This document shows positions 2,256 to 22,120 of a stretch of 23,439 nt of DNA, one piece after another (within the stretch, counting starts at the first letter, position 1; each line of letters begins with the position of its first letter). The position numbers were made by a program, and so were the translations under genes. A model generated the notes under the pieces. The model was not told the DNA's origin. It worked only from the letters and a program-made list of their open reading frames with translations, and did not search any database. This DNA comes from Bacteroidales bacterium. Its GTDB lineage: Bacteria; Bacteroidota; Bacteroidia; Bacteroidales; SM23-62. Location: contig JADHVS010000048.1 in assembly GCA_016783865.1 (NCBI GenBank), positions 1 to 23,439 on the forward strand, given 5' to 3'.

Positions 2256-2339
2256 GATACCAACTTTAGAATATATATTCATAATTTGCTTCAAAATTAT
2301 TTTATTACCTTTTACTCTAATCTAAAAACTAAATCTAAA

Positions 2340-5300: not shown

Positions 5301-5423
5301 GGATATAATCCCCAGCAAAAATCTCTGGGTGCGGAACAAAAAAGTACCCTTGGAGGATTTGCCCTTGGAGGAGCATATCCGTTACCCAGAACGATTTCGT
5401 TTGGACTTAATTTATCATTTTAA
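2340..5423 (+). CDS. SusC-like TonB-dependent outer-membrane transporter
   Basis: Outer-membrane barrel that imports glycan fragments with energy from TonB, paired with the SusD-like lipoprotein that follows. The start at ATG 2340 gives MGKIKLLLVIFFLGIFSAFS, a Sec signal peptide with likely cleavage near SMA-QE. A TTG-initiated extension to 2286 would bury that signal, so it was rejected. Next comes a carboxypeptidase-regulatory-like domain (about residues 22-110, GKVTDENGAGLPGANVTIKG). The TonB plug follows (about 120-240), with the SusC signatures EPLYVIDGYPV near residue 177 and STAIYGSRGANGVILINTKS. The remainder is the barrel, ending in YPLPRTISFGLNLSF with a C-terminal aromatic residue. 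Length 1027 aa is normal for the family. The next gene starts 13 bp after the stop, so the two form an operon. Substrate cannot be read from the sequence. Confidence 0.97.
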   Translation: MGKIKLLLVIFFLGIFSAFSMAQEITGKVTDENGAGLPGANVTIKGTTEGTVTNLDGEYSITVGETSDILVFSFIGYLTQEHAVAGLTVIDVQLEPGAYELAEVVAVGYGTMRRADLTGSVVSVRGDVIAERPLTNLNTALIGQMAGVSVELNDATPGGLTSVKIRGAGSISAGNEPLYVIDGYPVSQLEANSLLPADIASIDVLKDASSTAIYGSRGANGVILINTKSGANMTPRFNLDVSYGIANVAKRDYYDLLDADEYVEFIGVVKEELYVRDGFDPSVPMADRPIAYQIPDYVKNRDPNINTDWQDVIFEPANMKNYAMSVRGGNDRSKYYVSMGYAGDEGVVVGSDYEKYTARVKIDANLIDNRLTAGFNLSPSFANKRMGIINQGDVFSSVIGSAIAMPPIVPVYNDDGTYGSTAGIPGLMFYGNPLQLAKEYEDNYSLFTSMANSYLDLSIIEGLNLRTSFGFVFNNTTHDVFRPESLWRPFDPAPSYADGSSSYNNGINWLSETTLGYTKTFSDVHNINLMAGLTAQKDHGWSNYMYANNFPNDLVTTLNAGEVQRGNSDISEWSLLSYLGRVNYSYDDRYLITGTLRVDGSSRFGMDNRYGTFPSAAIAWRVSEESFLENSVTISNLKLRASYGMTGNNAIGNYAHIGLVGNTNQTFGMGAGSNFSGIYPTTIGNPGFSWEVSRQFDIGMDLGLFRQRISLVLDYYNNHTSDLLLNVNLPTTTGFSSVLQNIGEVENKGYEISLFTRNIEGKFKWSTGFNISYNHNEVLKLGPNDDPIFDFYGTRITEIGEEIGATNGLEVIGVLTQADIDAGVAIFPGEFAGWVKWRDVDGDGVISNFNGPDGINIGNPFPDYTFGMSNMFTYENFDLSIFLNGQTGGRTLDLVGQGMWSSGGNNIFKNWYENRYISDNEPGDGETPTLTFGLGGLPDTRLLQKTDFIRITNVTLGYNLPTKNISYLSGFRIYVSVENLTTWDRFDGYNPQQKSLGAEQKSTLGGFALGGAYPLPRTISFGLNLSF

Positions 5424-5436
5424 AAAAATATAGATA

Positions 5437-6831
5437 ATGAAAAGATATATTTGGATAACAATAGTTACTGGTATTCTGTTGGGAATATTCAGTAGTTGTG
5501 AAGATTTTCTCAATCTGACACCTGTTTCGCAGGCCAATGTTGAGGACTTCTATCAGACACCGGCCGATATCAACAATGCTGTAATGGCGGCCTATAAATT
5601 TCATAAAGCAATCTATTCAGACAGGTTCTGCTGTCAGCATATCATGGATGAATATAGGTCAGATAATACAGGTGTGGACGGGACCTATAGTGTGGATGAT
5701 TTTACCACTGATACAGGAGTAGAATGGTATATGTGGTCATGGGATCTTTGTTACCGGGCAATATATATGTCCAATATTGCCATGGAGAAAGCAGCGGATG
5801 TTGAAATGGACGCTGATTTACAAAACAGGTACATAGCCGAAGCAAGGTTTCTCAGGGCGATCACCTATTTTGAGCTGGTAAGAAATTATGGAGGAGTGCC
5901 ATTAGTACTTGAAACTCCTAAGTCGCTTGAAAAGGAAGATGTGAATGTATATCGCAACACTGTGGATGAAGTATATACCGGAATCATAGCTGACCTGCAA
6001 TTTGCTGAAACCAATCTTCCTGTTTCTTATCCTGATGATGCGGATGTAGGAAGGGCAACCAAAGGAGCAGCTAAAGGCTATCTCGCCAAAGTCTATTTAA
6101 CCACGGGAAATAATAGTGGTGCAGAGACTAAATTAAGAGAGGTATTAACCCTTGGCTATTCATTGCAGGCTAATTATGAAGATGCGTTCGGGGCAGGCAA
6201 TGGGAATAATTCAGAGATAGTATTCGAACTTCAATATAAATCAGGTACTGATGCTTGTCCTACGATTTATATATTTACCTCTATGCAGGTAGATGTTAAT
6301 CCAGGCATAGGTTATAATAAAGGCACCCAGGATCTGTATGATGCTTTTGAAGTTGGTGATCCACGTAGGGATTATTCAATGGCTCTGGATAATGAAAGCT
6401 TGTATTATTGTACCAAGTATAGTGACCCTGCTGCTTCTCCGGTTTCAGATGCTGACAATAATATACCTCTGATGAGGTATTCCGAAGTTTTGCTATTACT
6501 GGCCGAAAGCCTGGGAGAAACTACCGAAGCATACGGATTGATAAACCAGGTAAGGGCAAGGGTCGGCCTTGCTCCGATCGATGCATCAACACCCGGAACT
6601 TTTGAGGAGAAATTACTTCAAGAGAGGAGAGTGGAACTGGCATTTGAAAATCATCGCTGGCATGATCTTCTTCGTTTTGGTGTGGCCATTGAGGTCATGA
6701 ATGACTTTTTTGATACCTGGAAAAATGGTCGAGTGACAATAGGAGAGGATAATCTGTTGTTCCCAATACCTAATTTTACCCTGTTAAATAATCCGAACCT
6801 GGAACAAAATCCAGGTTATCCATCAGTTTAA
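5437..6831 (+). CDS. SusD/RagB-like surface glycan-binding lipoprotein
   Basis: Surface lipoprotein that caps the SusC-like transporter and binds the glycan. It opens MKRYIWITIVTGILLGIFSS followed by Cys21, a signal peptidase II lipobox. The start of the mature protein, CEDFLNLTPVSQANVEDFYQ, is the usual SusD opening. RYIAEARFLRAITYFELVRN and YGGVPLVLETP in the TPR-like N-terminal half are family signatures. So is the C-terminal block LLQERRVELAFENHRWHDLL, with RFG after it. The end, LLFPIPNFTLLNNPNLEQNP, is also typical. At 464 aa it is at the short end for SusD proteins (often 500-600), which may mean fewer surface loops. A strong terminator follows within 10 bp, so susC-susD can be a separate transcription unit from the enzyme genes. 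Confidence 0.96.
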   Translation: MKRYIWITIVTGILLGIFSSCEDFLNLTPVSQANVEDFYQTPADINNAVMAAYKFHKAIYSDRFCCQHIMDEYRSDNTGVDGTYSVDDFTTDTGVEWYMWSWDLCYRAIYMSNIAMEKAADVEMDADLQNRYIAEARFLRAITYFELVRNYGGVPLVLETPKSLEKEDVNVYRNTVDEVYTGIIADLQFAETNLPVSYPDDADVGRATKGAAKGYLAKVYLTTGNNSGAETKLREVLTLGYSLQANYEDAFGAGNGNNSEIVFELQYKSGTDACPTIYIFTSMQVDVNPGIGYNKGTQDLYDAFEVGDPRRDYSMALDNESLYYCTKYSDPAASPVSDADNNIPLMRYSEVLLLLAESLGETTEAYGLINQVRARVGLAPIDASTPGTFEEKLLQERRVELAFENHRWHDLLRFGVAIEVMNDFFDTWKNGRVTIGEDNLLFPIPNFTLLNNPNLEQNPGYPSV

Positions 6832-6877: not shown

Positions 6878-7073
6878 AAACTATTGATTACAAATTCTGC
6901 TTTTCTCAGCAGATGAGAAAAGGATAACTGTAATTATTCTCTATAATGGTATAATCAAATCCATCGATCAGATTAAAAATGGATCAATATAGTATAGGTG
7001 ATTTTATTTAGCATGGGATCCAATCAATTGTTGACTCTAAAATTTTCAGTCACCAGGATTAAAATAGTTGTCT

Positions 7074-9731
7074 ATGACATTCCATAATTTATACATTATA
7101 ATTATTCTCAGCTTGTGTTCCCTGTGGAGTTGCCAAAATGACACGGTCATACAATACAGCAAGAATAATGATGGACTGGTTGTAACGGATGGTGAGGTCA
7201 AAGCCGTTTTCACAGAAGATGATGAAGGTTATCCGTTACAGGTTTTTTATGTAAAAGAGGAAGAAGGATATAAAGAGATTATCAGGTCTTTCAGGCCCAA
7301 CATACCTGATGCTTTCCGGAATGATACTGCCAACGATTATGCACGTTTTTATGATACCAGGATCACTCCAAAAAGATACTTGATCACTGAACAAAAAGCG
7401 AATACCCGTTATGACAAAAAGAGTAGTACGATCATATTGGAAGGTGATAATAATGGTTTAACGGTCAATCAATACATTAATATTATACCATATGAAAAAA
7501 GGATTCATTATAAGGTAGAGTGCGAATTGCCTGATTCAAATCTCGATTATTTAATGAGCACCTTTCAGGTCAACATGGAGGCAGAACCTTTTTTTGTGCA
7601 CACTCCGGCACTAAAATATGATAATGAAGAATCGGGACAGAACCGGTTTAATATGTCTCCATCACAGGATCAGATAATTGGTGACAGATGTTTTCATGCA
7701 CCTGCCATCATCCTTCAGGATAAATCCTTTTTTGTGGCATTGGTCCCCTGCCTGGAGGCCATTAATAAGTATAAGTTAATTTCACCGGATGCCAGAAGAG
7801 AGAGCCTGATCCCAAGAAACCGGTTTGGAGTGCCAGTTGAAGATGATAAGTACACCATGCCTGCTGCTCTTGATCTGAATATTAAGAGCGGATTATCCTC
7901 AAAACCCATTTTAGCTTACGGATATGCGGATGCCATCATAGGCCATCATATGCACTTCAACCGGATGAATGACACAAGCATGATCAGAAAGGTCAACCAG
8001 AACAAAATAATATATGAGTTTGACCTGTTTCTTGATACAGAAATAAAAGAACACGTTGATTATCCGAAAATAAGCAGGTTCATCTGGGAAGAATACGGAC
8101 ATGAAGTTTTTAAGAACCGTCCACACCTGGCCATGCCTTTTGAAGAATACAGACGTATTATTGACAGCATAACGTTCAGGCCGAGTCCCTATCAGGAAAT
8201 TGATGTCCCTGTTCCGGGATATCCCAATACCGGATCATGGCTGCAATGGGAGGAGAATGGTATCCCAATGGGAGGTTATCGCTCAGCTATAAACTGGTGG
8301 AACGATAAACTTCATAATTCCGCCTTCTGGAATAATGCCCGGGATGCCTCAGGTTTCTGGTTTTGGGCCAAAGAACACAACGATTCCATTGCATTAGACC
8401 GTGCCCGCAGGATAATTAACTGGTGCCTGTCAGCCCCACGCAACGAACAAGGTTTATTTGCTACATTATATAATGCCGAAGAAAAATATTGGGGATTGCA
8501 ATTTTCTGATCCCGTTCATGGAGAAAACCGCTTTTTTCTTGAAGACAGCAGAAGTTACAACATAGCTACCATGAGCAAAACCGGGGCTCACCTGCTGGAT
8601 TATTATTTGCGTTGTGAGCCGGACGAAAGAATTGTTAATTATCTCAAACCCTATGGTGATTGGTTAATATCAGTGATTGATGAAAGAGGCAGTGTGCCTG
8701 CCTATGTTTCCGAAGAAATGGTCAATTCTGACATTCTTCGATATTCCGCCCATCCTGCTGCAAGTTTATGGTTCCTGGCAAACCTTTATCGTTCAACTTC
8801 CGAACCCGCATACCTTGAAGGAGCAAAAAAAATTGCTGTTTACCTTGAACAGGAGGTCCTGCCTGAAGCAAAATGGAAAGATATGGAGCAGTATTTTTCA
8901 TGTGGTGCAAAACCACTTTCCTTTACACGCGATCGATTACAGCACCAGATTGCAAGAGGTAATCTGTGCATTATATGGGCTTCCGAAGGATTCGCTTCCC
9001 TAGCTGATGCTACAGGTTCAGAAAGATATGTAAAAGATGGTCTGATGGCCGTCGAGTACCTCGTCTTTACCCAGTGCAGCTGGGATCCACACTTTATTTA
9101 TACGGCTTTCCCTTTTGGGGGATTCAGTGTTGATAATGCTGATGTTACAACATTTCTTGATGCACGTCAGGCTGAAACAGTCAAACCTTTGATCTGGTAT
9201 GCAAAAAAGGCAGGAAGACAGGATCTGTTAGAAAGAGCTGTTGCAGCTGCCCGTTCTTCTATTGTTTTGATAAATCATCCATTGCACAAATCGAACAATA
9301 TATACAGGCACACAAATATCTATCCTTTTGGTTTAGGCCCTGAGAATATCGATCATGAAGGGTATCCCCAGTCTGCTATGAGAACACATCCCAGTTGGGG
9401 AGAAGGATCAGGTATTTATACCGGGCTCGCGGAGGCTGCGAGAGCTCTTGGTGGATTGTATATCAATACAGAAAAAGAAATCGCAGTGGGTGTTGATGGG
9501 TTGCGGATATCGAAAATAACTTTTGAAGAAGAACAAGTGATAGTGGATGTAGAGAGTTGGTTATCAGAAAAATACCTAAAGGAACCCTGGGTAAAACCCT
9601 ATCATACAAATTTAGTGATTGATGGTGATATAAAGAGGATCATTTTCAATGATGAAAAAAATGATATTGACAACCGGATTGTTGATTTGGTAGTCTTGCC
9701 TGGTAAATATGTTCGTATTGTTAAAGAATAA
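7074..9731 (+). CDS. Large exported lipoprotein, probable alpha-barrel glycosidase, family not recognised
   Basis: I do not recognise this 885-aa protein as a named family. ATG 7074 gives MTFHNLYIIIILSLCSLWSC, a lipobox with Cys20 as the lipidated residue; a TTG two codons earlier is less likely. Residues about 25-330 are rich in beta-strand-like segments (DGLVVTDGEVKAVFTEDDEG, GLTVNQYINIIPYEKRIHYK). From about 380 on it has alternating helical blocks with many Trp, Tyr and acidic residues: GSWLQWEENGIPMGGYRSAI, NNARDASGFWFWAKEHNDSI, FLEDSRSYNIATMSKTGAHL. This layout is typical of enzymes with a beta-sandwich followed by an (alpha/alpha)6 barrel. It heads a run of genes (next start 16 bp after its stop) that includes GH116-like and GH94-like proteins of the same general build, so a role in glycan cleavage is inferred. 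The 242-bp gap upstream has no promoter I can name. Confidence 0.75.
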   Translation: MTFHNLYIIIILSLCSLWSCQNDTVIQYSKNNDGLVVTDGEVKAVFTEDDEGYPLQVFYVKEEEGYKEIIRSFRPNIPDAFRNDTANDYARFYDTRITPKRYLITEQKANTRYDKKSSTIILEGDNNGLTVNQYINIIPYEKRIHYKVECELPDSNLDYLMSTFQVNMEAEPFFVHTPALKYDNEESGQNRFNMSPSQDQIIGDRCFHAPAIILQDKSFFVALVPCLEAINKYKLISPDARRESLIPRNRFGVPVEDDKYTMPAALDLNIKSGLSSKPILAYGYADAIIGHHMHFNRMNDTSMIRKVNQNKIIYEFDLFLDTEIKEHVDYPKISRFIWEEYGHEVFKNRPHLAMPFEEYRRIIDSITFRPSPYQEIDVPVPGYPNTGSWLQWEENGIPMGGYRSAINWWNDKLHNSAFWNNARDASGFWFWAKEHNDSIALDRARRIINWCLSAPRNEQGLFATLYNAEEKYWGLQFSDPVHGENRFFLEDSRSYNIATMSKTGAHLLDYYLRCEPDERIVNYLKPYGDWLISVIDERGSVPAYVSEEMVNSDILRYSAHPAASLWFLANLYRSTSEPAYLEGAKKIAVYLEQEVLPEAKWKDMEQYFSCGAKPLSFTRDRLQHQIARGNLCIIWASEGFASLADATGSERYVKDGLMAVEYLVFTQCSWDPHFIYTAFPFGGFSVDNADVTTFLDARQAETVKPLIWYAKKAGRQDLLERAVAAARSSIVLINHPLHKSNNIYRHTNIYPFGLGPENIDHEGYPQSAMRTHPSWGEGSGIYTGLAEAARALGGLYINTEKEIAVGVDGLRISKITFEEEQVIVDVESWLSEKYLKEPWVKPYHTNLVIDGDIKRIIFNDEKNDIDNRIVDLVVLPGKYVRIVKE

Positions 9732-9747
9732 TGAAATAACTCAAGCT

Positions 9748-12282
9748 ATGAAAAAGATATTAATCATTTTGACCATTTGCATACTAACTGTTGGACTGAC
9801 AGGAGTAAACGCTAAGGATTGGCCGGTGCTGAAGCATTATGACCAGGATCATACCTGTAAAATTGCATTGCCCATTGGGGGTATCGGAACAGGAACTGTT
9901 TCAATGGGAGGAAGGGGTAATTTGCAGGATTGGGAAATAATGAACCGGCCGGCAAAAGGTTATAATCCCGGATCAGGAAGAGAGAATTCACCCTTTTTTA
10001 CTCTTTATACTGATGTAGGTGGTAAAAAAGACCTACGTCTGCTGGAAGGCCCGGTTCCGTTTTTCCTCTATGAAGGTATGGCAGGTGCAGTGGCTACAAA
10101 TCACGGACTTCCAAGGTTTAAGAATGTCTCTTTTGATGCAGCCTATCCATTTGGTCAGGTTAACCTGAGTACGCCACAGTTGCCCCTGGAGGTAAAAATT
10201 AAATCTTTTAATCCGTTAATTCCGGGAGATGTTGATAACAGTAGTATTCCTGTTGCTGTTATCGATTTTGAAATTACGAACACCTCTGATGAAGAAATTG
10301 TTTTCAGTATATGTGGGACAATGCAAAACTTTATTGGAGAGGATGGAACCGAAGGGAAGGCGCAAGACAACTTAAATACATATAAAAAAGAACAGGACTT
10401 TTGTGGTATTTTTTTTAGTTCCGATGGTGTGAATAAAAAGGCAGACCAATATGGGGAGATGACCCTGATTACCACTCATGCCGGAGATGTTACTTACAGG
10501 ACTGCCTGGAAACCCGAACACTGGGGATCCTCCATTCTTGACTTCTGGGATGATATGTCACAGGACGGAAAGCTGGAGAACAGGAAGGATGAAGAATCTG
10601 ATAAACCAATGGCATCTTTATCTGTCAGCGATGTTATCCCCGCAAAAGAAACAAAAACGATCCGGTTTTTAATAACCTGGTACTTTCCAAACAGAACAGC
10701 ATGGTCTAGTGAATCATTGGTTAATTATTATTGTACAAAATATGAGGGGGCCTGTGATGTGGCGATGAAAACAATACCTGAATTAAATTATTTGGAAGAA
10801 AAAACGATTGAGTTCGTTGAAGCTTTCTGTGAAAGTGACCTTCCGGAGGTGGTGAAAGAGGCAGCCCTGTTTAATATAAGTACGCTCAGAACCGAAACTT
10901 GTTTCCGCCTTTCAGATGGAAATTTGTTTGTATGGGAAGGATGCCTTGATAAAGTGGGTTGCTGTTTTGGTTCCTGTACGCATGTCTGGAATTATGAAAC
11001 AGCCACCGGATTTTTATTTGGCGACCTGGCAAAAACCCGGAGGTATGTAGAATTCGGACATGCTACCCGGGATGATGGCTTGATGAGTTTTCGTGTAAAG
11101 TTGCCTTTGGAAGATATCTCGGAATATTCATATGCGGCGGCCGATGGCCAGATGGGGACCATTATGAAGTTTTACAGGGATTGGCAACTGTCCGGCGATG
11201 ATGATTTTTTTAAACCGTTATACCCGGCGGCTAAAAATGCCCTTTCTTATGCCTGGATAGAAGGGGGCTGGGATGGGAACCAGGATGGAGTTATGGAAGG
11301 TGTTCAACACAATACTATGGATGTTGAGTATTATGGTCCTAATCCGCAAATGACCATATGGTACCTTGGAGCCCTGAGGGCTGTTGAAGAAATGGCTAAT
11401 CATATGAATGATAAAAAAATGGCTGCAAAGTGCAGTAAGCTATTTAAAAAGGGGAGTCAATGGGTGGATGAAAACCTGTTTAACGGCGAATATTATTATC
11501 ATCAGATCATTGTTCCTGATAAAGATAATATTCCCGAGGAACAGCTTGTTGGCATGGGTGCAGAAGATTACGGTAATCCCGATTATCAGCTGGGTGAAGG
11601 ATGCCTGGTGGATCAAATGGTAGGCCAGTATATTGCCCATGTCTGTGGCCTGGGTTACCTGCTGGAAAAAGACAATGTGGGTAAAGCCCATCAAAGTATA
11701 ATGAAATATAACTACAGAGAAAACTTATCAGATCATTTTAATTGTTTTCGGACCTATGCCCTGGGTGATGAGGCTGCATTGCTAATGGCCTCTTATCCAA
11801 AATCACGGCCTGTGAATCCCTTTCCATATTTTACAGAAGTGATGACAGGATTTGAGTATACTGCTGCAATAGGCATGTTGTATGAAGGTCAGATCGACAA
11901 TGGATTAAAGTGTATTCAAAATATCAGGGACCGTTATGATGGTAGAAAAAGGAGCCCGTTTGATGAAGCAGAATGCGGTCACCACTATGGCCGTGCCATG
12001 GCCAGCTGGTCAGCATTGTTGGCGCTGACCGGGTTCCATTATTCTGGTTTATCAGAAGAGATCACATTCAATAATATATCCGGAAAATATTTCTGGTCGA
12101 ATGGTTATGCTTATGGGACCGTTAATCTGGATGACAAGGATGGTGGCAAGCAGATGGAACTGACCATTCTGAACGGCACTTTGCAGCTCTCAAGCATTCA
12201 TATTGAAACTGTTGGAAAACTTACTCTGCCTGAAAGCAGAATCCTTAAGACCGGAGAAATAGCCACGTTTAAAATAAATTAA
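9748..12282 (+). CDS. GH116-like (GBA2/DUF608) glycosidase, Sec-exported
   Basis: Retaining beta-glycosidase family; characterised GH116 members act on beta-glucosides, beta-xylosides or GlcNAc glycosides. The preferred start is ATG 9748, giving MKKILIILTICILTVGLTGV and likely cleavage after VNA. The ATG at 9709 would overlap the upstream gene and hide the signal. The N-terminal GBA2_N region begins with LPIGGIGTGTVSMGGRGNLQ and continues DWEIMNRPAKGY, a family hallmark. The catalytic (alpha/alpha)6 domain has DGNLFVWEG, CCFGSCTHVWNYETATGFLF and DGQMGTIMKFYRDWQLSGD. By alignment from memory to human GBA2 (E527, D677) the nucleophile is E397 (WEG) and the acid/base D525 (NTMDVEYYG). Both are present, so it should be active. 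Length is 844 aa. The next gene starts 2 bp after the stop, so translation is probably coupled. Substrate within GH116 is not predictable here. Confidence 0.9.
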   Translation: MKKILIILTICILTVGLTGVNAKDWPVLKHYDQDHTCKIALPIGGIGTGTVSMGGRGNLQDWEIMNRPAKGYNPGSGRENSPFFTLYTDVGGKKDLRLLEGPVPFFLYEGMAGAVATNHGLPRFKNVSFDAAYPFGQVNLSTPQLPLEVKIKSFNPLIPGDVDNSSIPVAVIDFEITNTSDEEIVFSICGTMQNFIGEDGTEGKAQDNLNTYKKEQDFCGIFFSSDGVNKKADQYGEMTLITTHAGDVTYRTAWKPEHWGSSILDFWDDMSQDGKLENRKDEESDKPMASLSVSDVIPAKETKTIRFLITWYFPNRTAWSSESLVNYYCTKYEGACDVAMKTIPELNYLEEKTIEFVEAFCESDLPEVVKEAALFNISTLRTETCFRLSDGNLFVWEGCLDKVGCCFGSCTHVWNYETATGFLFGDLAKTRRYVEFGHATRDDGLMSFRVKLPLEDISEYSYAAADGQMGTIMKFYRDWQLSGDDDFFKPLYPAAKNALSYAWIEGGWDGNQDGVMEGVQHNTMDVEYYGPNPQMTIWYLGALRAVEEMANHMNDKKMAAKCSKLFKKGSQWVDENLFNGEYYYHQIIVPDKDNIPEEQLVGMGAEDYGNPDYQLGEGCLVDQMVGQYIAHVCGLGYLLEKDNVGKAHQSIMKYNYRENLSDHFNCFRTYALGDEAALLMASYPKSRPVNPFPYFTEVMTGFEYTAAIGMLYEGQIDNGLKCIQNIRDRYDGRKRSPFDEAECGHHYGRAMASWSALLALTGFHYSGLSEEITFNNISGKYFWSNGYAYGTVNLDDKDGGKQMELTILNGTLQLSSIHIETVGKLTLPESRILKTGEIATFKIN

Positions 12283-12284
12283 AT

Positions 12285-14777
12285 ATGAAGGGGAAATTAA
12301 TTATTATTCTGACTCTGTCCTTTATTTTTATAGCAACTAATGCCAGTGAGAAGGATTGGTATGAATTCTCCCCGGATGGCCAAGTTTGTCATATTTATAA
12401 TCGAAATCTGCCAACTCCATGGTTTAACAGGCTTACGAATGGTTACCTGACAGCGTGGGTAACCCATAAAGGAGGGATTGAGGTTTTTTTGTCTGATCCT
12501 TCTATCAATGGTTTGGTCAATCCCCAGGAAGTTTCCGGAAACTTTTATGTTACCAGGGCAGGTAGTGACAAAATCACCTGGGTAAATAATCCTGAAAATG
12601 AAGATCAGTGGGAATGCAGGGTCGGCCTTGGTTATTCTACCATCTCTTGCACCAAGGATAATATTAAAACGGAGGTGACCTATTTTATTCCATTGGACGA
12701 TAATGTTCTTTTAATGTCTATTGAGATGACTAATCTTTCAGCATCAGATCAGGATGTAAATATATATGTTCAGGTGGAATGGAACTTAGGTGATGCTGTT
12801 AAGTATATTGTACAGCGTGGAGATGGCCGTGCCGGAAGCCAGCAAAATCTTTACAAAAAAACCTGGTTCACTGATAACACAATATGGGCCGTTCACCCTA
12901 ACTGGAGAAATGTTGGAGCCTGCAGGGCATGGCCTTATACCGGTTACCTTAGCTCAAATTTCCCTGTTGAATCCTATGAAACCATACGTTCAAAATTCCT
13001 GGGATATGAATTTGATTTTAGCCATCCTCAGGCAGTAAAAATTGGTGAATTGTCCAACACTGATTTCTGGAGCGAGGATGATTACCCCTGGGGGGTATTG
13101 CATACAAAAATCAGCCTTAAACCTGATGAGACAAAAGAATTTACCTATATACTGGGTATGGAGAGGGATGAAGAAAGTGCGACCAGAATACTTAAAAAAT
13201 ATGCAGAACAGAATATGGTAAATGAAGAATTTGCAAGGTTACAGGATCACTATAACGATTTGATTGAACATTCAATTAATATTAACACTCCGGATATCGA
13301 TAATGACAGGATTATTAATATTTGGTCGAAGTACCATTGGAATCAGGTCATTAAAAGAAGTCAGAACGATGATGCTCTTGGAGTTGGATTGTGGTGCTAC
13401 GGTATTGAGGGTGGTGGCATGTCAGTGCATCCCGAACACATCATGTTACCCAATGACAAGGACATCCTGTATCAGGAAATTAATTATATGTTGAGAAACC
13501 AGACGGAAGATGTATCTAAAACATCTATTTATACAAGTCAGACTGCAATGCTTTATGAGGATTTACAAATGGATTCAAGACCAGGATTTCCGGCAAATCA
13601 CTTCGATGTTCCTCATCATCATAATATCTGGGGATTTCTCACCTCTCTTTTATTCTATATGAAAGAATATGGTGATAAAGATTTTATTGATAAAGAGATC
13701 GCCTTTTTTGAAGGGTCCAGCGGTGATATCTGGGAGCACATCGATAAGGCAATTATAATAAGTTTATCCGGCTTATCCCCCAATGGTCTTCCACTAATCC
13801 CGGCAAACGTCGGTGACTGGATGGATGAGTTTACAAAGATCAGCCAGAACGGGAATGCAGAAAGTGTGATGCTTGGAATGCAATTGTGTTTTTATTTAAA
13901 GGAATTTGCAAAAATTGCAGAATTGGCCGGCCAGGGAGAACTGCAAAAGAAATGGGAAAAACATTATGAAAGTCTTAAAAACGCCATAAATGAGACAGCC
14001 TGGGATGGGAACTGGTATATACGGGCCTTTTCTGACAGGAACGGAAAGCGAACCCCGGTTGGCACTCATATGAATAATGAGGGTAAGATATATCTCAATG
14101 CACAATCCTGGAGTGTACTGGGTGGGGTGGCTTCCGGGGATCGGGCCAGCAAGGCACTTCATTCTGTCGGATCCATGATGATCAGTGATTTCGGACCAAT
14201 GATCTTTTACCCCCCTTATAGCTCATTTAATGAATACGTTGGAACCCAATCCTTGTATTCTCCTGGTTTCAGGAATGGATGTATCTATTTGAGACCCACA
14301 AGCTGGGCAATCATGGCAGCATGTCTGGCTGGTGAGAGTGACCTTGCCTGGGAGATGTATAATAAGGCTTCGCTGGTAAATCAAACCAGGGACATAGAAA
14401 GGTTTCAGTGTGAACCATATGTATATCCTGAAAATTATGTAGGCCCGGATCACAGGTTAGCCGGGAAGGGCCAGTTTCAATGGTGTCTTGGAGAAGCTAC
14501 ATCGTGGATGTGGGTAGCTTACAATTATTATCTGCTTGGAATACGTCCTGAGTATGACGGGTTATTAATCGATCCAAAAATGCCGGAAGATTGGGACCAT
14601 TTCTCTGTAGAGAGACCGTTCCGGGGCGACCATTATTCAATCGATATTATGAAAATTGAAAAACTCTCACCAGGTAAAATAAAGATATATCTGGACGGTA
14701 AACCTATAAAGGGAAACCTGATCAGACCAGTTGGAGATGGAGAACAGCACAAGGTTCGGGTGGAGATAGGTCAATAA
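12285..14777 (+). CDS. Secreted GH94-like protein with altered phosphate site
   Basis: The build is that of GH94 (cellobiose and chitobiose phosphorylases): an N-terminal beta-sandwich, a linker helix near residue 330, an (alpha/alpha)6 barrel and a C-terminal beta piece. Landmarks are ANVGDWMD (D514 matches the catalytic acid of the DWND motif), AQSWSVLGGVASGDRA, and the tail GIRPEYDGLLIDPKMPEDWD with FSVERPFRG. Unlike typical GH94 enzymes it begins with a Sec signal (MKGKLIIILTLSFIFIATNA). The two phosphate contacts are changed: the usual HANPW is RPTSW (R670) and the usual TGSA is LGEA (L735, G736, E737). The 65-residue spacing between these positions equals that of H666-T731 in Cellvibrio gilvus cellobiose phosphorylase, as I recall it. 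It may be a hydrolase or transglycosylase rather than a phosphorylase; that is inference. Length 830 aa. The gene starts 2 bp after the GH116-like gene. Confidence 0.85.
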   Translation: MKGKLIIILTLSFIFIATNASEKDWYEFSPDGQVCHIYNRNLPTPWFNRLTNGYLTAWVTHKGGIEVFLSDPSINGLVNPQEVSGNFYVTRAGSDKITWVNNPENEDQWECRVGLGYSTISCTKDNIKTEVTYFIPLDDNVLLMSIEMTNLSASDQDVNIYVQVEWNLGDAVKYIVQRGDGRAGSQQNLYKKTWFTDNTIWAVHPNWRNVGACRAWPYTGYLSSNFPVESYETIRSKFLGYEFDFSHPQAVKIGELSNTDFWSEDDYPWGVLHTKISLKPDETKEFTYILGMERDEESATRILKKYAEQNMVNEEFARLQDHYNDLIEHSININTPDIDNDRIINIWSKYHWNQVIKRSQNDDALGVGLWCYGIEGGGMSVHPEHIMLPNDKDILYQEINYMLRNQTEDVSKTSIYTSQTAMLYEDLQMDSRPGFPANHFDVPHHHNIWGFLTSLLFYMKEYGDKDFIDKEIAFFEGSSGDIWEHIDKAIIISLSGLSPNGLPLIPANVGDWMDEFTKISQNGNAESVMLGMQLCFYLKEFAKIAELAGQGELQKKWEKHYESLKNAINETAWDGNWYIRAFSDRNGKRTPVGTHMNNEGKIYLNAQSWSVLGGVASGDRASKALHSVGSMMISDFGPMIFYPPYSSFNEYVGTQSLYSPGFRNGCIYLRPTSWAIMAACLAGESDLAWEMYNKASLVNQTRDIERFQCEPYVYPENYVGPDHRLAGKGQFQWCLGEATSWMWVAYNYYLLGIRPEYDGLLIDPKMPEDWDHFSVERPFRGDHYSIDIMKIEKLSPGKIKIYLDGKPIKGNLIRPVGDGEQHKVRVEIGQ

Positions 14778-15044: not shown

Positions 15045-15081
15045 TTTTAACCTCTATGCGTGAATTGATTTAACATTGAAT

Positions 15082-17910
15082 ATGGAGAAGAATACAAAGT
15101 GCTCTGTATCAGGATGCTGTGGCAATCAACATGAAAAGGATTCCGCCTTTCAAATATCAAGAAGAGACTTTGTAAAGATAGCAGGACTGGGGACCTCAGG
15201 TTTTGTACTCATGCCTCCTGCAGGCGCGAAAGTCATGGCGGGTCCATTCACAGCACAGGATTTCCAACACCTGATCCCGGAGGACAAAAAATTGTCGCCT
15301 GAATGGGTACGATCACTTACTAAGAGGGGTGAGCCTGAGATATTCTCCTCTCAAGCTGATGAGCTTAAATATATCGGGATGCCTATTGGAGGCATCTGTT
15401 GCGGCCAACTCTATATTAGTGGTGATGGAAGACTCTGGCTTTGGGATATTTTCCAATCCAATTATGAGCGGGAAGCCCCTGCTACTGGTGGCTGGCGTTT
15501 GGACCAGTTTACATTTGGCGGGCTCTATGCCAAACCCAGGACATCCATGGGCAATGATAAACACTCAGTGGATCAGGGTTTTGCACTCAAGGTGGTCAGC
15601 GATAAGATGACCATCACAAAAACACTGAATCATGATGGATTTAATGACATCACCTTTCGGGGTGAATATCCTGTCGCAAAAGTAACCTACAAGGATCAGG
15701 GTTTTCCACTGGAAGTGGACCTCACGGCTTTTTCGCCATATATTCCCCATAATACAAAGGATTCAAGCATACCAGTCACGATACTTCAATATAACATCAA
15801 AAACACTGGCAAGAAAAATTGGTCCGTTTCACTCGCTGGGTGGCTGGAAAATAAGGTTTGCCCTGACCTGGGTGAGGGAATTGAGGGAGAAAGAATAAGC
15901 GAAATTCTAATAAGTGCTCAGAGAGTTACATTATTTCACCATGCCAAAGGGGAAGGATTGAGTGAAAGAAAAGGATTTGGTGACATGGCTTTGTCGGTGA
16001 TCGGAGGTGGAGAAATAAAATATTCGACAGAGGTGGGAAAAGAAGTAAATGCTCAAGCAGTTTTCCGGTCGGTACTAGAAAATAAATCATTAAGACAAAG
16101 TCGAAGTTTTGACGAATCTCTTGTGGGCGCTATTGCAAAGGAATTCAAATTGGAACCCGGAGAGACGAAAACAGTAACATTCCTTCTATCCTGGTATTTT
16201 CCCTACTATAATGAGCAGAATCCTGCCGGGGGACAAATGCAGGACATAACAGAATTTTACTTCCTGCACCGTTATTACAAGAATATATTTGACTCAGCTG
16301 ATGATGTTGCGGCTTATGTCACCGACCACTTCGACAGGCTGGTAAATACAACACTGCTCTGGAATAATACCTGGTATGATTCCTCTTTGCCCTGGTGGTT
16401 TCTCGACAGAACCTTTATTTCCATGGATTGTCTGGCATCCCAAACCTGCCACCTGTTTGACAACGGTCGATTCTGGAGCTGGGAAGGAGTGGATTGTTGC
16501 GAGGGTACTTGCACCCATGTATGGAATTATGCCCAGGGAATGGCCCGGGTATTTCCTTCTCTTGAGAAAGACCTGCGCCAGCGGGTGGATTTTGGGATTG
16601 CCTACAATGAGGATGGTTCGATTTCTTACAGGGGGGAGAATAAAGACAGGTACACCGGCCAACAATTTGCAACGGATGGTCAACTTGGGACAATTTTAAG
16701 AGTCTATCGCGAACATCAAATGTCTGCTGATTACCACTTTTTAGAAAGTATATGGTACAGGGTAAAACAGTCTATGCAAAACATTATTGATCAGGATAGA
16801 GATCAGGACGGAATTTTGGAAGGAAAACAATCTCACACCTTAGATGCTTCATGGTACGGACCAATGGGATGGATCAGCTCATTATACCTGGCTGCCCTTT
16901 CAGCCTGTATAGAGATGGCTGGTGAGTTAGGGGACGAGGATTTTTCAGTGAAGTGCAAAACACTACTTGAGAAGGGCCAAAAGACAATAGTGAAGGATCT
17001 GTTTGACGGAGAATATTTTATCCACATTCCCCCTGATTTCAACTCGATTAACACAAACGATGGCTGCCATATTGATCAGGTCGTTGGTCAAAGCTGGGCG
17101 TGGCAGGTACACCTTTCCAGGATATTGCCGAAAAAAGAAACCCTGGCTGCTTTATCCTCCTTGTGGAAATACAATTTTGCGCCCGATGCCGGACAATACC
17201 GTATCGACCACAAAACCATAAAAGGTGCAAGGATTTATGCTATGCCAGGGGAAGCGGGTTTACTAATGACCACCTGGCCAAAAGGTGGCGACGAAAAAGC
17301 AGTACCCGGCATGGCAGACAGGCAGGAAGATCAAATTCACTGGCCCGGGCCGGGAGGCTATTTTGATGAATGCATGAATGGTTTTGAATACCAGGTGGCA
17401 TCACATATGGTATGGGAAGGGATGATCACAGAAGGGATGGCCATTACAAAAGCAATACACGAGAGGTACAGTGCTAAAAAACGCAACCCTTATGATGAAA
17501 TTGAATGTTCCAGTCATTATGTCCGCTCAATGGCCGCCTTTGGAATTTTCCTGGCTGCATGTGGTTATAAATACCATGGGCCGAAGGGATATCTTGGTTT
17601 TGATCCACGCATTCACCCGGAGAATTTCAAATGCCCTTTTACGGTAGCCGAGGGCTGGGGAACATATGCGCAACAGATAGAGGAAGCAGGGCAGAAACAC
17701 AAGGTAATGTTGAAATATGGCCAATTGATGTTAAAGAGCCTTTCATTTGGCCTGATAAAGAGAGATGCCGAAGTTGTTTCTGTAATAGCCGGCCTGGGTA
17801 ATGAGGAAGTAGATGTTTCATTCAGGCAAAATGAAGATAAGCTTTTGCTCAATTTCAATACTATTCATTTCCAGGATTCTACTGAACTGGAAATAATGGT
17901 GAAGTATTAG
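15082..17910 (+). CDS. GH116-like (GBA2/DUF608) glycosidase with Tat signal
   Basis: Second GH116-like enzyme, 942 aa from ATG 15082 (a TTG two codons upstream is unlikely). The N-terminus has a Cys cluster (KCSVSGCCGNQ) and then a twin-arginine signal SRRDFVKIAG with R27-R28, a hydrophobic stretch GLGTSGFVLMPP and a likely cut near VMA-GP. This predicts export in folded form. The GBA2_N part opens YIGMPIGGICCGQLYISGDG. The barrel has FWSWEGVDCCEGTCTHVWNY, ATDGQLGTILRVYREHQMSA and GPMGWISSLYLAAL. The expected nucleophile E468 (WEG) and acid/base D588 (HTLDASWYG) are both present. It is a paralogue of the 9748 gene but diverged, about 100 residues longer and using a different export route, so the two probably do not share a substrate or folding need. 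It follows a 304-bp gap and may have its own promoter. Confidence 0.9.
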   Translation: MEKNTKCSVSGCCGNQHEKDSAFQISRRDFVKIAGLGTSGFVLMPPAGAKVMAGPFTAQDFQHLIPEDKKLSPEWVRSLTKRGEPEIFSSQADELKYIGMPIGGICCGQLYISGDGRLWLWDIFQSNYEREAPATGGWRLDQFTFGGLYAKPRTSMGNDKHSVDQGFALKVVSDKMTITKTLNHDGFNDITFRGEYPVAKVTYKDQGFPLEVDLTAFSPYIPHNTKDSSIPVTILQYNIKNTGKKNWSVSLAGWLENKVCPDLGEGIEGERISEILISAQRVTLFHHAKGEGLSERKGFGDMALSVIGGGEIKYSTEVGKEVNAQAVFRSVLENKSLRQSRSFDESLVGAIAKEFKLEPGETKTVTFLLSWYFPYYNEQNPAGGQMQDITEFYFLHRYYKNIFDSADDVAAYVTDHFDRLVNTTLLWNNTWYDSSLPWWFLDRTFISMDCLASQTCHLFDNGRFWSWEGVDCCEGTCTHVWNYAQGMARVFPSLEKDLRQRVDFGIAYNEDGSISYRGENKDRYTGQQFATDGQLGTILRVYREHQMSADYHFLESIWYRVKQSMQNIIDQDRDQDGILEGKQSHTLDASWYGPMGWISSLYLAALSACIEMAGELGDEDFSVKCKTLLEKGQKTIVKDLFDGEYFIHIPPDFNSINTNDGCHIDQVVGQSWAWQVHLSRILPKKETLAALSSLWKYNFAPDAGQYRIDHKTIKGARIYAMPGEAGLLMTTWPKGGDEKAVPGMADRQEDQIHWPGPGGYFDECMNGFEYQVASHMVWEGMITEGMAITKAIHERYSAKKRNPYDEIECSSHYVRSMAAFGIFLAACGYKYHGPKGYLGFDPRIHPENFKCPFTVAEGWGTYAQQIEEAGQKHKVMLKYGQLMLKSLSFGLIKRDAEVVSVIAGLGNEEVDVSFRQNEDKLLLNFNTIHFQDSTELEIMVKY

Positions 17911-17978: not shown

Positions 17979-19226
17979 GTGAAAAATAAAATACTCCTCA
18001 TATCTGCAATCATAATATTAGCTGGTTGCAACAGCAATAATGTGAATAATAAATCTTCAAATCAAAGTAATATGAATACAGCCTTTTTACCAGGAACATT
18101 TGGTTATGATATTGAGTTGATTGGTTCTCAACATGAATTGGTCATTCTTAAAGGGGAAAACGAACAATCTGTTATTGCTGTAAGTCCTGCCTGGCAAGGA
18201 CGTGTGATGACCAGTTCCCTGGCAGGCCCGGAAGGGAAAAGTTTAGGTTGGATCAACCATGAATTGATTCAATCAGGACGAACTGAAGAACATATCCATG
18301 CTTATGGTGGTGAAGACAGGTTCTGGCTTGGTCCTGAAGGAGGGCAGTTTTCCATATATTTTAAGCCGGGTATTCAATTTACTTTCGAAAATTGGTTTGT
18401 TCCGGAAGAAATTGATACCAAACCATTTGACATTATTGATCAAAGTCAATCAGAAGTGAGTTTTCGAAAAGCAATGAGCCTGTTGAATTATTCTAACATA
18501 AGGTTTGATCTGTTGGTTGAAAGAAAGGTGAAATTACTAGATCCAAAAGGAGTATCCCGTGTACTTGGTCTTGAAACACCAGGTCTTGATATGGTTGCAT
18601 ATGAAAGTGTTAACACCATTACTAATACCGGTAAAAATGAATGGACGAAAGAATCGGGAATGCTTTCCATTTGGATACTGGGTATGTTTCAGCCATCAGA
18701 ATCCACTACTGTCATTATTCCTTTTATATCGGGATCAGATTCTGATCTGGGGGCCAGGGTTAACGATACCTACTTTGGTAAAATTCCGGATGACAGGTTA
18801 AAGGTGGCAGAGGATGTACTCTTTTTTCTGGCAGATGGTAAAAAACGTGGTAAAATAGGGATATCTACAAAGAGAGTGCAGGAATTTATGGGCGCATATA
18901 ACGAAGAAACAAATCTGCTGACAATTGTAAATTTCACTCTGGATAAGGAAAATACAGATTATGTGAATTCTATGTGGGAATTGCAGGAAGATCCGTTCTC
19001 AGGTGATGTTATTAACTCGTACAATGACGGCCCGCTTGAAGATGGCAGCCAGATGGGGCCTTTTTTCGAATTGGAAAGTTCATCTCCTGCTGCCGGGCTG
19101 GCACCTGGTTCCAGCCTCACTCATGTTCATAGAACCATTCACATCACGGGTGATAAAGCTAAGCTTGATTCAATATCACAAAAAGTACTGGGTGTGACTT
19201 TAGCTGAAGTTTATGCAGCATTTTAG
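17979..19226 (+). CDS. DUF6786-like lipoprotein
   Basis: A 415-aa exported lipoprotein of unknown activity. It starts with GTG at 17979: the resulting N-terminus MKNKILLISAIIILAGC has a clear lipobox with Cys17, which the next Met (residue 32) would lose. The mature protein is beta-rich, with SVIAVSPAWQGRVMTSSLAG, HAYGGEDRFWLGPEGGQFSI, and a C-terminal block GPFFELESSSPAAGLAPGSS followed by LTHVHRTIHI. This pattern matches proteins I remember annotated as DUF6786, which look like galactose-mutarotase-type beta-sandwiches. The His residues in THVHRTIH and the acidic GGEDRFW segment are candidate site residues. It sits 68 bp after a GH116-like gene and before a sulfatase, so sugar binding or epimerisation in the periplasm is plausible but unproven. 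Confidence 0.7.
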   Translation: MKNKILLISAIIILAGCNSNNVNNKSSNQSNMNTAFLPGTFGYDIELIGSQHELVILKGENEQSVIAVSPAWQGRVMTSSLAGPEGKSLGWINHELIQSGRTEEHIHAYGGEDRFWLGPEGGQFSIYFKPGIQFTFENWFVPEEIDTKPFDIIDQSQSEVSFRKAMSLLNYSNIRFDLLVERKVKLLDPKGVSRVLGLETPGLDMVAYESVNTITNTGKNEWTKESGMLSIWILGMFQPSESTTVIIPFISGSDSDLGARVNDTYFGKIPDDRLKVAEDVLFFLADGKKRGKIGISTKRVQEFMGAYNEETNLLTIVNFTLDKENTDYVNSMWELQEDPFSGDVINSYNDGPLEDGSQMGPFFELESSSPAAGLAPGSSLTHVHRTIHITGDKAKLDSISQKVLGVTLAEVYAAF

Positions 19227-19299
19227 TACAGCTTGCTATGCTAATATAGATGCAAATAAGGATACGTATAATTTTCATCATAATGAGAGGTTTAAAACC

Positions 19300-20883
19300 A
19301 TGAATAAATTAAAATGTTCTCTAAATACCTTCTTAATATTCATTTTGGTAATGGGTTTGGGAGGTTGCGGACGTCTGGTTGACAGGGGATATCCGGGCTA
19401 TCTTCCCAATATTATTATAATTCTGGCAGACGATCTGGGTTACAGTGATTTGAGCTGTTATGGATCAGAGAAGATAAATACACCTAACCTGGATAAAATG
19501 GCTTCAGATGGCATGGCCTTCACAAATTTCTGGACAACTTGCAACGTTTGCAGCCCTTCCCGTGCATCGTTACTTACCGGTCGATATCCCCAGCGATGTG
19601 GTGTCCCTTTTGCCCTGGGAGGAGTTTATAGTGATCTCGGATTACAGGATGATGAAATAACCATTGCAGAGTTACTTAAGGATAAAGGTTATTCGACGGC
19701 TGCAATTGGAAAGTGGCACCTGGGGATTCCACTTGGCTTTAATTATACTACTCACCAAGGATTTAACAGCAGTTCTGAATTTCACCCTAACAACCAGGGA
19801 TTTGACCTGTTTTTTGGTGCAGTGGGAAATGCATTCCCTGATGGACGCATTCCTCTTATAGAAAATGAAATTGTAGTGGATGATTCAGTTACAGTGGCTA
19901 CTGTGACTGATCATTACAATTCAAGGGCCATTGAATTCATAAAGGAGAATAAAGAAAATCCGTTTTTTATCTATTTTGCCCATACAAGGCCGCATGCCCC
20001 ATGGACACCCAATCCCCGGTTTGATGGCACTTCTGATGGCGGAGTATATGGAGATATGGTGGAGGAACTGGATGCCAGTGTTGGTGAAGTGATAGCTGTA
20101 TTGAAAGACTTGGAATTAGATGAAAAAACACTGGTCATATTTACATCTGATAACGGTGCAGCGATAACTGAAGACCAGCGATATGGATCGAATCTGCCTT
20201 TCAGGGGTGGAAAAGGTACTACATGGGATGGCGGTCATCGTGTACCTGGCATTTTTTACTGGCCGGGTAAGATAGCTGCAGGGGAAGTCAGTAATCAGAT
20301 GGCAACAGTTATGGATCTGTTGCCTACCATAAAAAATATGGCTGGAGCAGAATTACCTGATGATCGAGTTATAGATGGTTACAACATCTGGCCGTTGCTA
20401 TCAGGTGATGATAAAACGGAACAACCAGGGCAAAGTTTTTATTATTATAACGGATTCAATCTTCAGGCAATCCGAGATGGCAAATGGAAATTGCATCTTC
20501 CAAGGGAGGAAAAAATGCTTGTCTGGTGGGAGAGTGGATTAAGGGATTTAAAGGACCCCCTGTTATTTAACCTGGATAATGATAGCAGCGAAAGTATAAA
20601 TGTTGCTGATGAAAATCCTCAGGTCGTAAACCGCTTACTTGATCAGGCTCAAAAAGTGCGAAATGAACTTGGATCATGGGATATTCCGGGCACCGGCCAA
20701 AAAGACATCGAACGCTTGTTAAATGACCGGACAACTTTACGAATATTAAGATCACATCAGGATCATCAAAATTTAGGTGTTTCAAAATTGGATACTACCA
20801 CCCCTGAAATAAATCTGTATTATTGGGAGATAGCAAAGGAAAACAGACGAAAAAAATTGGAAGAATTATCTGAAAAGAATTAA
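19300..20883 (+). CDS. S1-type (formylglycine) sulfatase lipoprotein
   Basis: Hydrolyses sulfate esters, most likely from carbohydrate. ATG 19300 gives MNKLKCSLNTFLIFILVMGL then GGC, a lipobox with Cys23; the longer frame from 19213 would overlap the upstream gene and add no signal. The maturation motif CSPSR (C84, converted to formylglycine by an anaerobic or oxygen-dependent maturase not in this window) lies in CNVCSPSRASLLTGRYPQRC. Metal ligands are visible at D44-D45 (ILADDLGYSD) and D284-N285 (FTSDNGA). KWHLG, HTRPHAPW and GGHRVPGIFYWPGK are further family blocks. Length 527 aa is normal and all key residues are present. Being next to glycosidases and SusCD it most likely desulfates the PUL substrate. 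I cannot assign the S1 subfamily. Confidence 0.95.
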   Translation: MNKLKCSLNTFLIFILVMGLGGCGRLVDRGYPGYLPNIIIILADDLGYSDLSCYGSEKINTPNLDKMASDGMAFTNFWTTCNVCSPSRASLLTGRYPQRCGVPFALGGVYSDLGLQDDEITIAELLKDKGYSTAAIGKWHLGIPLGFNYTTHQGFNSSSEFHPNNQGFDLFFGAVGNAFPDGRIPLIENEIVVDDSVTVATVTDHYNSRAIEFIKENKENPFFIYFAHTRPHAPWTPNPRFDGTSDGGVYGDMVEELDASVGEVIAVLKDLELDEKTLVIFTSDNGAAITEDQRYGSNLPFRGGKGTTWDGGHRVPGIFYWPGKIAAGEVSNQMATVMDLLPTIKNMAGAELPDDRVIDGYNIWPLLSGDDKTEQPGQSFYYYNGFNLQAIRDGKWKLHLPREEKMLVWWESGLRDLKDPLLFNLDNDSSESINVADENPQVVNRLLDQAQKVRNELGSWDIPGTGQKDIERLLNDRTTLRILRSHQDHQNLGVSKLDTTTPEINLYYWEIAKENRRKKLEELSEKN

Positions 20884-20902: not shown

Positions 20903-22120
20903 ATGAAATCCAGGAAAACAGATAAACAGGATCATAACTACCCGGAAATTAATTTAGCCATCGATAATTGTTTTGCTTCAAAGAGATTTACAGAACCATC
21001 TGAGTGGATGAGTATAATACAGGACCTGGGAGTTAAGTATATTGAAGCAAGTGCTGATACTGAATGCGATCCCTTATACATGACTCGGGATTATATGATG
21101 AGTTGGAGGGACGAAGTAAAAAAAGCTGCATCACTATATAACACTTCTGTTTGCAATTTATATTCAGGCCATGGAACATATGCCACCCTTGGCTTATCTC
21201 ACACTAGTGAAAGGATTAGGGATCGAATATTGAATGAGTGGTTAAAACCGATGGTTGAGATGGCATCGGATCTGGGTGCAGGTTTAGGTTTTTACTGCCA
21301 TGCCTTCGCTGATCAGGTTTTGCAGGATACTGAGAAATATTATACTTATAAAGAAGACCTGGTTGCCAGGCTGGCTGAACTGGCCCGTTTTGCAGCTGAA
21401 TCAGAATGCTCTGCTGTTGGCGTTGAGCAAATGTATTCACCGCACCAGATCCCCTGGACGATAAACGGTGCTAAAAATCTTATAAGAGAGGTTTTTAAAA
21501 AATCCGGCAAACCTTTCTATATAACCATAGATACAGGGCATCAATCAGGACAGAACAGATTCAGGAAAATTCAAAGAAATGACATCATCGAAGTCCTGAA
21601 GCGCTACAATGGAAAAGACAAACTTCTCAACCTCTGGCTTGGCCCCCGATCAGCATATAATCTGCTTGAAAGATCTTATGATCTTAAAATGGGCGAATAT
21701 GATGACCTGGCCAGAGAAATTTGCAAGGAGATGGATAAATATCCTTACCTGTTTTCAGAACTGCAGGATAGTTCTCCTTACCAATGGCTGGAAGAACTGG
21801 CCTGTTATTCTCCGATTATTCATCTGCAGCAAACAGACGGGACAGTATCCAATCACTGGCCATTTACAAAAGAATATAACGATAAAGGCATAATCGATGG
21901 TGAAAAGCTATTGATGGCCGTAAAAAAATCATATAATCAACATTATCCTTCAATGCCTGAAAAAGTTAAAAAGATTTTTCTGACCATTGAAGTATTTGCT
22001 TCTACGGCAAGTATAAATTATGATACAATTCAACAGCTGAAGGAAACGGTCAGATATTGGCGGCAATTCGTTCCTGAAGACGGTAAAAAACTGGACGAAT
22101 TAGTAGTAGAAATGAAATAA
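20903..22120 (+). CDS. Xylose-isomerase-like TIM-barrel protein, probable sugar isomerase/epimerase
   Basis: A 405-aa protein without signal peptide, so cytoplasmic, unlike its exported neighbours. It resembles the xylose isomerase-like TIM-barrel (AP endonuclease 2) superfamily. Candidate metal-site residues follow the usual order at strand ends: E175 (VGVEQM), D210 and H213 (ITIDTGHQ), H307 (PIIHLQQTDG) and E363 (LTIEVF). It begins with NLAIDNCFASKRFTEPSEWM, consistent with the first barrel strand. ATG 20903 lies 19 bp after the sulfatase stop and the next gene starts 9 bp after its stop, so it is in the operon. It may convert a monosaccharide released by the PUL before FucI or kinase steps; the substrate is unknown. 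Other superfamily roles (dehydratase, epimerase) cannot be excluded. Confidence 0.8.
   Translation: MKSRKTDKQDHNYPEINLAIDNCFASKRFTEPSEWMSIIQDLGVKYIEASADTECDPLYMTRDYMMSWRDEVKKAASLYNTSVCNLYSGHGTYATLGLSHTSERIRDRILNEWLKPMVEMASDLGAGLGFYCHAFADQVLQDTEKYYTYKEDLVARLAELARFAAESECSAVGVEQMYSPHQIPWTINGAKNLIREVFKKSGKPFYITIDTGHQSGQNRFRKIQRNDIIEVLKRYNGKDKLLNLWLGPRSAYNLLERSYDLKMGEYDDLAREICKEMDKYPYLFSELQDSSPYQWLEELACYSPIIHLQQTDGTVSNHWPFTKEYNDKGIIDGEKLLMAVKKSYNQHYPSMPEKVKKIFLTIEVFASTASINYDTIQQLKETVRYWRQFVPEDGKKLDELVVEMK

What the first reader, a model, noticed from the sequence alone, without database searches (positions are those of the whole stretch)
12285..14777. Secreted GH94-like protein that lost the phosphorylase phosphate site
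Seen: a Sec signal, the GH94 fold landmarks and catalytic D514 in GDWMD. The two positions that contact phosphate in characterised GH94 phosphorylases are replaced: HANPW becomes RPTSW (R670) and TGSA becomes LGEA (L735-A738). Known: in clan GH-L the phosphate of GH65/GH94 occupies the place of the general base of GH15 glucoamylases. Inference: E737, two residues after the lost Thr, could serve as a new base, making this an exported inverting hydrolase or a transglycosylase. The periplasm or outside would also be an odd place for a phosphorylase.
Basis: partly seen in the sequence, partly recalled or inferred. Interest (0 to 1): 0.75.

Follow-up and report, generated by a model that had tools for sequence, protein, structure and literature searches.

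The report
Secreted GH94 relative without phosphate site
A secreted bacterial sugar-cleaving protein has the fold of enzymes that cut sugars with phosphate, but its family has lost the phosphate site and carries acidic residues suggesting that it cuts with water instead.

The parts
12285..14777 (+). GH94-fold exported protein, 830 aa (Pfam: supersandwich 43-291, catalytic domain 322-752)
12285..12344 (+). Sec-type signal peptide, residues 1-20 (cleavage after TNA, by eye)
   Evidence: hydropathy heuristic; direct reading
13362..13364 (+). Q360, at the place of phosphate-binding R351 of CgCBP
   Evidence: PMC5501786
13407..13412 (+). E375-G376, aligned with subsite -1 residues R367-D368 of CBP (alignment gapped here; no [FYM]RD motif anywhere in the loop)
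13434..13436 (+). E384, acidic residue shared with the sister clade, absent in canonical GH94; second-choice base
13818..13826 (+). W512-M513-D514; D514 = general acid (D490 of CgCBP)
14292..14294 (+). R670, replaces phosphate-binding H666
14430..14432 (+). E716, proposed general base (ENY-x12-F-x-W motif)
14487..14489 (+). L735, replaces phosphate-binding T731
14493..14495 (+).
2286..5423 (+). SusC-like TonB-dependent transporter (named by eye)
   Evidence: related sequence in 3 of 14 loci
5437..6831 (+). SusD-like lipoprotein (named by eye)
   Evidence: related sequence in 3 of 14 loci
7068..9731 (+). 887-aa lipoprotein-like protein, beta-sandwich plus alpha/alpha barrel, distant GH127 hint; related sequence in 10 of 14 loci
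9709..12282 (+). GH116 protein (857 aa)
15076..17910 (+). second GH116 protein (944 aa), twin-arginine-like N-terminus by eye
17979..19226 (+). DUF6786 protein (PF20583)
19213..20883 (+). sulfatase (PF00884), CSPSR motif by eye
20903..22120 (+). xylose-isomerase-like TIM barrel protein (PF01261)
22130..23437 (+). GH106-like protein, cut by window end

Best explanation
The protein is an exported, phosphate-independent inverting glycosidase with the GH94 fold. Inferred mechanism: D514 protonates the leaving group, as D490 does in cellobiose phosphorylase; the phosphate pocket (R351/H666/T731) has been dismantled and water attacks instead, activated by a general base, most likely E716, at the place where GH63 and GH37 inverting hydrolases appear to carry theirs. 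Loss of the -1 pair R367/D368 and of E659 points to a glycone and aglycone unlike those of cellobiose-type enzymes. It probably trims oligosaccharides of a sulfated glycan next to GH116 enzymes and a sulfatase. Shown: residue losses, clade-wide conservation, predicted fold, export-like N-termini, gene neighbourhood. Inferred: hydrolysis, base identity, inversion, substrate.
For: R351, R367, D368, E659 are 64/64 in unique canonical GH94 rows, H666 61/64 (3 Gln), T731 63/64 (1 Ser). In clade A no row has R351 or R367 (0/66), H666 or T731 (0/64 covering) or E659 (0/64 covering); Asp in the D368 column in 2/66. Clade B: R351 0/39, R367 0/39, D368 0/39, H666 0/39, T at 735 in 1/37, but E659 kept in 38/38. 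D514 and W512 are invariant in 66/66, 39/39 and 64/64. A scan of acidic columns conserved in at least 95% of clade A finds two in the catalytic domain that are also conserved in B and acidic in under a quarter of canonical rows: E384 (0/64) and E716 (7/64). ENY-x12-F-x-W is in 52/66 clade A proteins and 1 of 3300 shuffles; E. coli YgjK has ENY-x12-F-S-W with E750 = E727 after removal of 23 residues; a PDB title calls E727A a glycosynthase mutant. Profile alignment: YgjK-family base on E716 in 4/4 wide windows (Prob 97.2, 69.8, 43.5, 0.4); GH37 base on E716 in 24/24 windows (Prob 0.2-88.7) (TreA residue 496 checked). PMC7263609: sulfate in GH94 sits at the general-base position of GH63/GH78/GH37. 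Quick tree of 83 rows: A, B, canonical and A+B each one side of a branch, 99-100 SH-aLRT. Export-like N-termini: A 58/63, B 30/35, canonical stand-alone 2/25 (heuristic).
Against: No activity data. No coordinates, so E716 was not placed in space. The profile placement depends on the motif itself: with E716-N717-Y718 masked, YgjK alignments keep their score (Prob up to 97.3) but no longer reach the base (0/12), so the significance comes from the barrel upstream, and GH37 alignments shift to residue 715 (9/9). The clade B profile puts the YgjK base at column 711 in 6/6 windows and does not reach the GH37 base (0/6); the canonical profile without Glu rows never reaches it (0/12, 0/9). Many of the short windows have Prob under 5. 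Seven of 64 canonical rows have Glu at column 716 with an intact phosphate site, so that Glu alone does not make a hydrolase. R670, and clade B's Lys at 737, leave a cationic option for another anion.
Confidence: 0.57

Rival explanations
1. Exported inverting hydrolase in which E737, two residues after the lost Thr, is the general base.
For: E737 63/64 in clade A, S/T/A in 64/64 canonical rows; it lies in the first turn of the helix whose N-terminus held phosphate (helix 735-750).
Against: Lys in 35/37 and Ala in 2/37 clade B rows with the same phosphate-site loss; no alignment or 94 puts a GH63 or GH37 base there.
Confidence: 0.15
2. Still a phosphorylase, or an enzyme using another anion, with a rebuilt pocket around R670.
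For: R670 64/64 and 39/39; G736 kept; fold and acid kept.
Against: Three of four contacts lost clade-wide, invariant Glu at 716 and, in clade A, 737 near the site; exported, where sugar-1-phosphate is of little use.
Confidence: 0.09
3. Transglycosylase or retaining enzyme on the same scaffold.
For: GH121, a structural relative, is described as retaining although its neighbour families invert (PMC7263609, passage).
Against: D514 and the proposed base position are those of inverting relatives; the polysaccharide-locus setting suits hydrolysis.
Confidence: 0.1
4. Catalytically dead binding protein.
For: -1, +1 and phosphate residues all changed.
Against: D514, W512, E716, R663 and N664 stay invariant or nearly so over a clade down to about 38-40% identity to the query.
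Confidence: 0.06

Closest known systems
GH94 cellobiose/chitobiose phosphorylases (clan GH-Q)
   Different: R351, H666, T731, R367, D368, E659 lost; exported; E716 and E737 fixed
GH65 alpha-1,2-glucosidase FjGH65A (PMC8626586, passages)
   Same: Precedent: member of a phosphorylase family with the phosphate site replaced and a Glu general base; Bacteroidota
   Different: GH65, alpha-glucoside; -1 residues conserved among GH65 hydrolases, whereas here the GH94 -1 pair is lost
GH130 beta-mannosidases (PMC4599007, abstract start)
   Same: Precedent: basic phosphate residues replaced by carboxylates, hydrolysis
   Different: Other family and fold (fold recalled)
GH63 YgjK / GH37 trehalase
   Different: alpha-glycosidases; little sequence similarity elsewhere; Z far below GH94

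Membership tests
GH94 (Pfam/fold sense) | PF06165 + PF17167 above curated cut-offs | tested here: met
   115 and 234.7 bits against 23 and 27
GH94 (Pfam/fold sense) | GH94 fold over full length | tested here: met
GH94 phosphorylase | General acid Asp in DWND | tested here: met
   D514, Asp in 66/66
GH94 phosphorylase | Phosphate residues R351, H666, T731 | tested here: not met
   0/66, 0/64, 0/64 covering clade A rows
GH94 phosphorylase | Subsite -1 R367/D368 | tested here: not met
   R367 0/66, D368 column Asp 2/66, [FYM]RD in the loop 0/66; the alignment is gapped here
GH94 phosphorylase | Phosphate-dependent cleavage | not testable with these tools
   needs assay
GH63/GH37-type inverting hydrolase (works like) | Glu general base at the E727/E496 place | tested here: inconclusive
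   for; masking control and clade B profile against
GH65/GH15 (clan GH-L) | Sequence or fold membership | tested here: inconclusive
   No such Pfam match for the query at E 0.001, though clade A member P0061 matches the GH65 C-terminal domain weakly (24.6 bits, cut-off 22); no GH65/GH15 entry among the 50 rows shown

The most novel reading that the evidence does not exclude
The first hydrolytic lineage in clan GH-Q: two exported sister clades of GH94-fold enzymes that dismantled the phosphate site and the glucose-type -1 site together and carry a GH63-type general base (E716), with a clade-specific partner at 737 (Glu or Lys) suggesting two different specificities. It would merit its own GH family.
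Probability: 0.5. Interest if true: 0.68.

Novelty: new variant of a known kind. Interest (0 to 1): 0.55.

Why it matters
PMC12102758 (passage) describes clan GH-Q as sharing catalytic, phosphate and -1 residues. A lineage that breaks the last two but keeps the acid would be a third family, after GH65 and GH130, in which phosphorolysis and hydrolysis interconvert. It also warns against automatic labels: 12 of the 68 proteins and 12 of the 49, all in these two clades, bear the source name cellobiose phosphorylase. And it offers a target for a new activity on an unknown, probably sulfated, glycan.

Tried and rejected

Rows dropped before counts: P0113 from canonical counts (misaligned); P0112, P0114, P0115 never aligned; two duplicate canonical rows; of 63 loci taken for the canonical set 58 gave a domain over 650 residues; P0066, P0067 and P0103-P0106 (fragments) left out of tree and signal counts, and near-identical rows thinned for the tree. 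Some of the 25 canonical N-termini come from uncertain starts, and two genes are counted twice there. The script stopped with an error before its last canonical windows.

Full report
What is there. The ORF at 12285-14777 (+) encodes 830 aa. It begins 2 bases after the stop of a GH116 gene, in a same-strand array: SusC-like, SusD-like, an 887-aa lipoprotein-like protein, GH116, this protein, GH116, DUF6786, sulfatase, xylose-isomerase-like, GH106-like (SusC/SusD named by eye). Pfam matches are PF06165 and PF17167; no NCBIfam model matches at E 0.001. The closest solved sequences are GH94 phosphorylases.

Active site. CgCBP phosphate residues are R351, H666, T731, G732 and sugar residues R367, D368, W488, Y653, E659, N660, F664 (PMC5501786, passages). 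In alignment the query has Q360, R670, L735, G736; the FRD loop is replaced; W512, Y658, N664, Y668 stand at the sugar places; E659 is deleted. On 64 unique canonical rows: R351 64, R367 64, D368 64, E659 64, H666 61 (+3 Gln), T731 63 (+1 Ser). Clade A (66 rows, two of them fragments without residues 655-680): R351 0/66, R367 0/66, D368 column Asp 2/66, H666 0/64, T731 0/64, E659 0/64. Clade B (39 rows; P0065, P0069-P0106): R351, R367, D368, H666 0/39, T at 735 in 1/37, E659 kept in 38/38. D514 is Asp in every row of the three sets.

Two clades. Homologues of the query and of P0065 form clades A and B. A quick IQ-TREE of 83 rows puts canonical, A, B and A+B each on one side of a branch with 99-100 SH-aLRT. 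A heuristic reads export signals in 58/63 A, 30/35 B (27 Tat-like) and 2/25 canonical stand-alone proteins. P0061 (A) and P0101 (B) both come from 81,236-base Bryobacteraceae contigs, probably the same one (inferred from length and name).

Which base? The scan of acidic columns (same letter in at least 95% of clade A) found, conserved in B and acidic in under a quarter of canonical rows: E384 (A 65/66, B 39/39, canonical 0/64) and E716 (A 64/64, B 38/38, canonical 7/64) in the catalytic domain, and D170 (9/61 canonical) in the supersandwich; E461 is intermediate (29/64 canonical). E515 and E737 are fixed in A only; position 737 is Lys in 35/37 B rows. E716 starts ENY-x12-F-x-W, present in 52/66 A proteins and 1/3300 shuffles; YgjK has ENY-x12-F-S-W around E750, i.e. 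E727 after removal of 23 residues, and two YgjK relatives keep it. A PDB title calls E727A a glycosynthase mutant. Profile alignments put the YgjK-family base on E716 in 5/6 clade A and 5/6 A+B windows and in 2/6 of an all-GH94 profile, the rest not reaching it; in 4/4 wide windows (Prob 97.2, 69.8, 43.5, 0.4); and the GH37 base on E716 in 24/24 windows, two of them above Prob 80 and most under 5. TreA residue 496 is that Glu; that E496 is the base is recalled. Against: masking the motif leaves the YgjK alignments strong but short of the base (0/12), and shifts the GH37 ones by one (9/9); clade B's profile places the YgjK base at column 711 in 6/6 windows and does not reach the GH37 base (0/6); the canonical profile never reaches it (0/12, 0/9). 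Independently of alignment, PMC7263609 (passages) states that sulfate in GH94 sits where GH63, GH78 and GH37 have the general base. I hold E716 as the most likely base, E737 and E384 as alternatives.

Known or new. Phosphorylase/hydrolase switches are known in GH65 (PMC8626586, passages) and GH130 (PMC4599007, abstract start). PMC12102758 (passage) describes clan GH-Q as sharing catalytic, phosphate and -1 residues. No title or abstract start in my listings (empty) reports a hydrolytic GH94. I rate it a new variant of a known kind.

Noticed in passing
7068-9731: 887-aa protein with no Pfam match above cut-off and no PDB sequence relative at E 1; beta-sandwich plus alpha/alpha barrel, distant GH127 hint; related sequence in 10 of 14 loci, in two copies in L001, L002, L003 and L008.
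   Followed up: partly
P0065, P0069-P0106 (clade B): Sister clade of exported GH94-fold proteins with Lys instead of Glu at 737 (35/37) and Pro instead of Glu at 710 (37/38), mostly Tat-like signals.
   Followed up: partly
P0068, L016, L017, L133, L135-L137: GH94 subfamily without export signal, with an intact phosphate site yet Glu at column 716; may be a phosphorylase keeping an old base position.
   Followed up: no
L013 10001-12319: Flavobacterium sp. NK2020 copy lies in several frames with stops, apparently a pseudogene.
   Followed up: no
L014 4283-4816: Two short GH94-like remnants beside GH116 and 887-aa-type genes in Acidobacteria AH-259-O06.
   Followed up: no
G008 C456:1206-2273: Very divergent GH94-domain match (E 2.9e-15, open frame 987 aa) in a genome that also has a clade A protein.
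   Followed up: no
15076-17910: Second GH116 enzyme has an SRRDF twin-arginine-like motif near its start, unlike the first GH116.
   Followed up: no
2-1738 (-): L-fucose isomerase gene, divergent from the locus, cut by the window edge; may point to fucose in the substrate.
   Followed up: no
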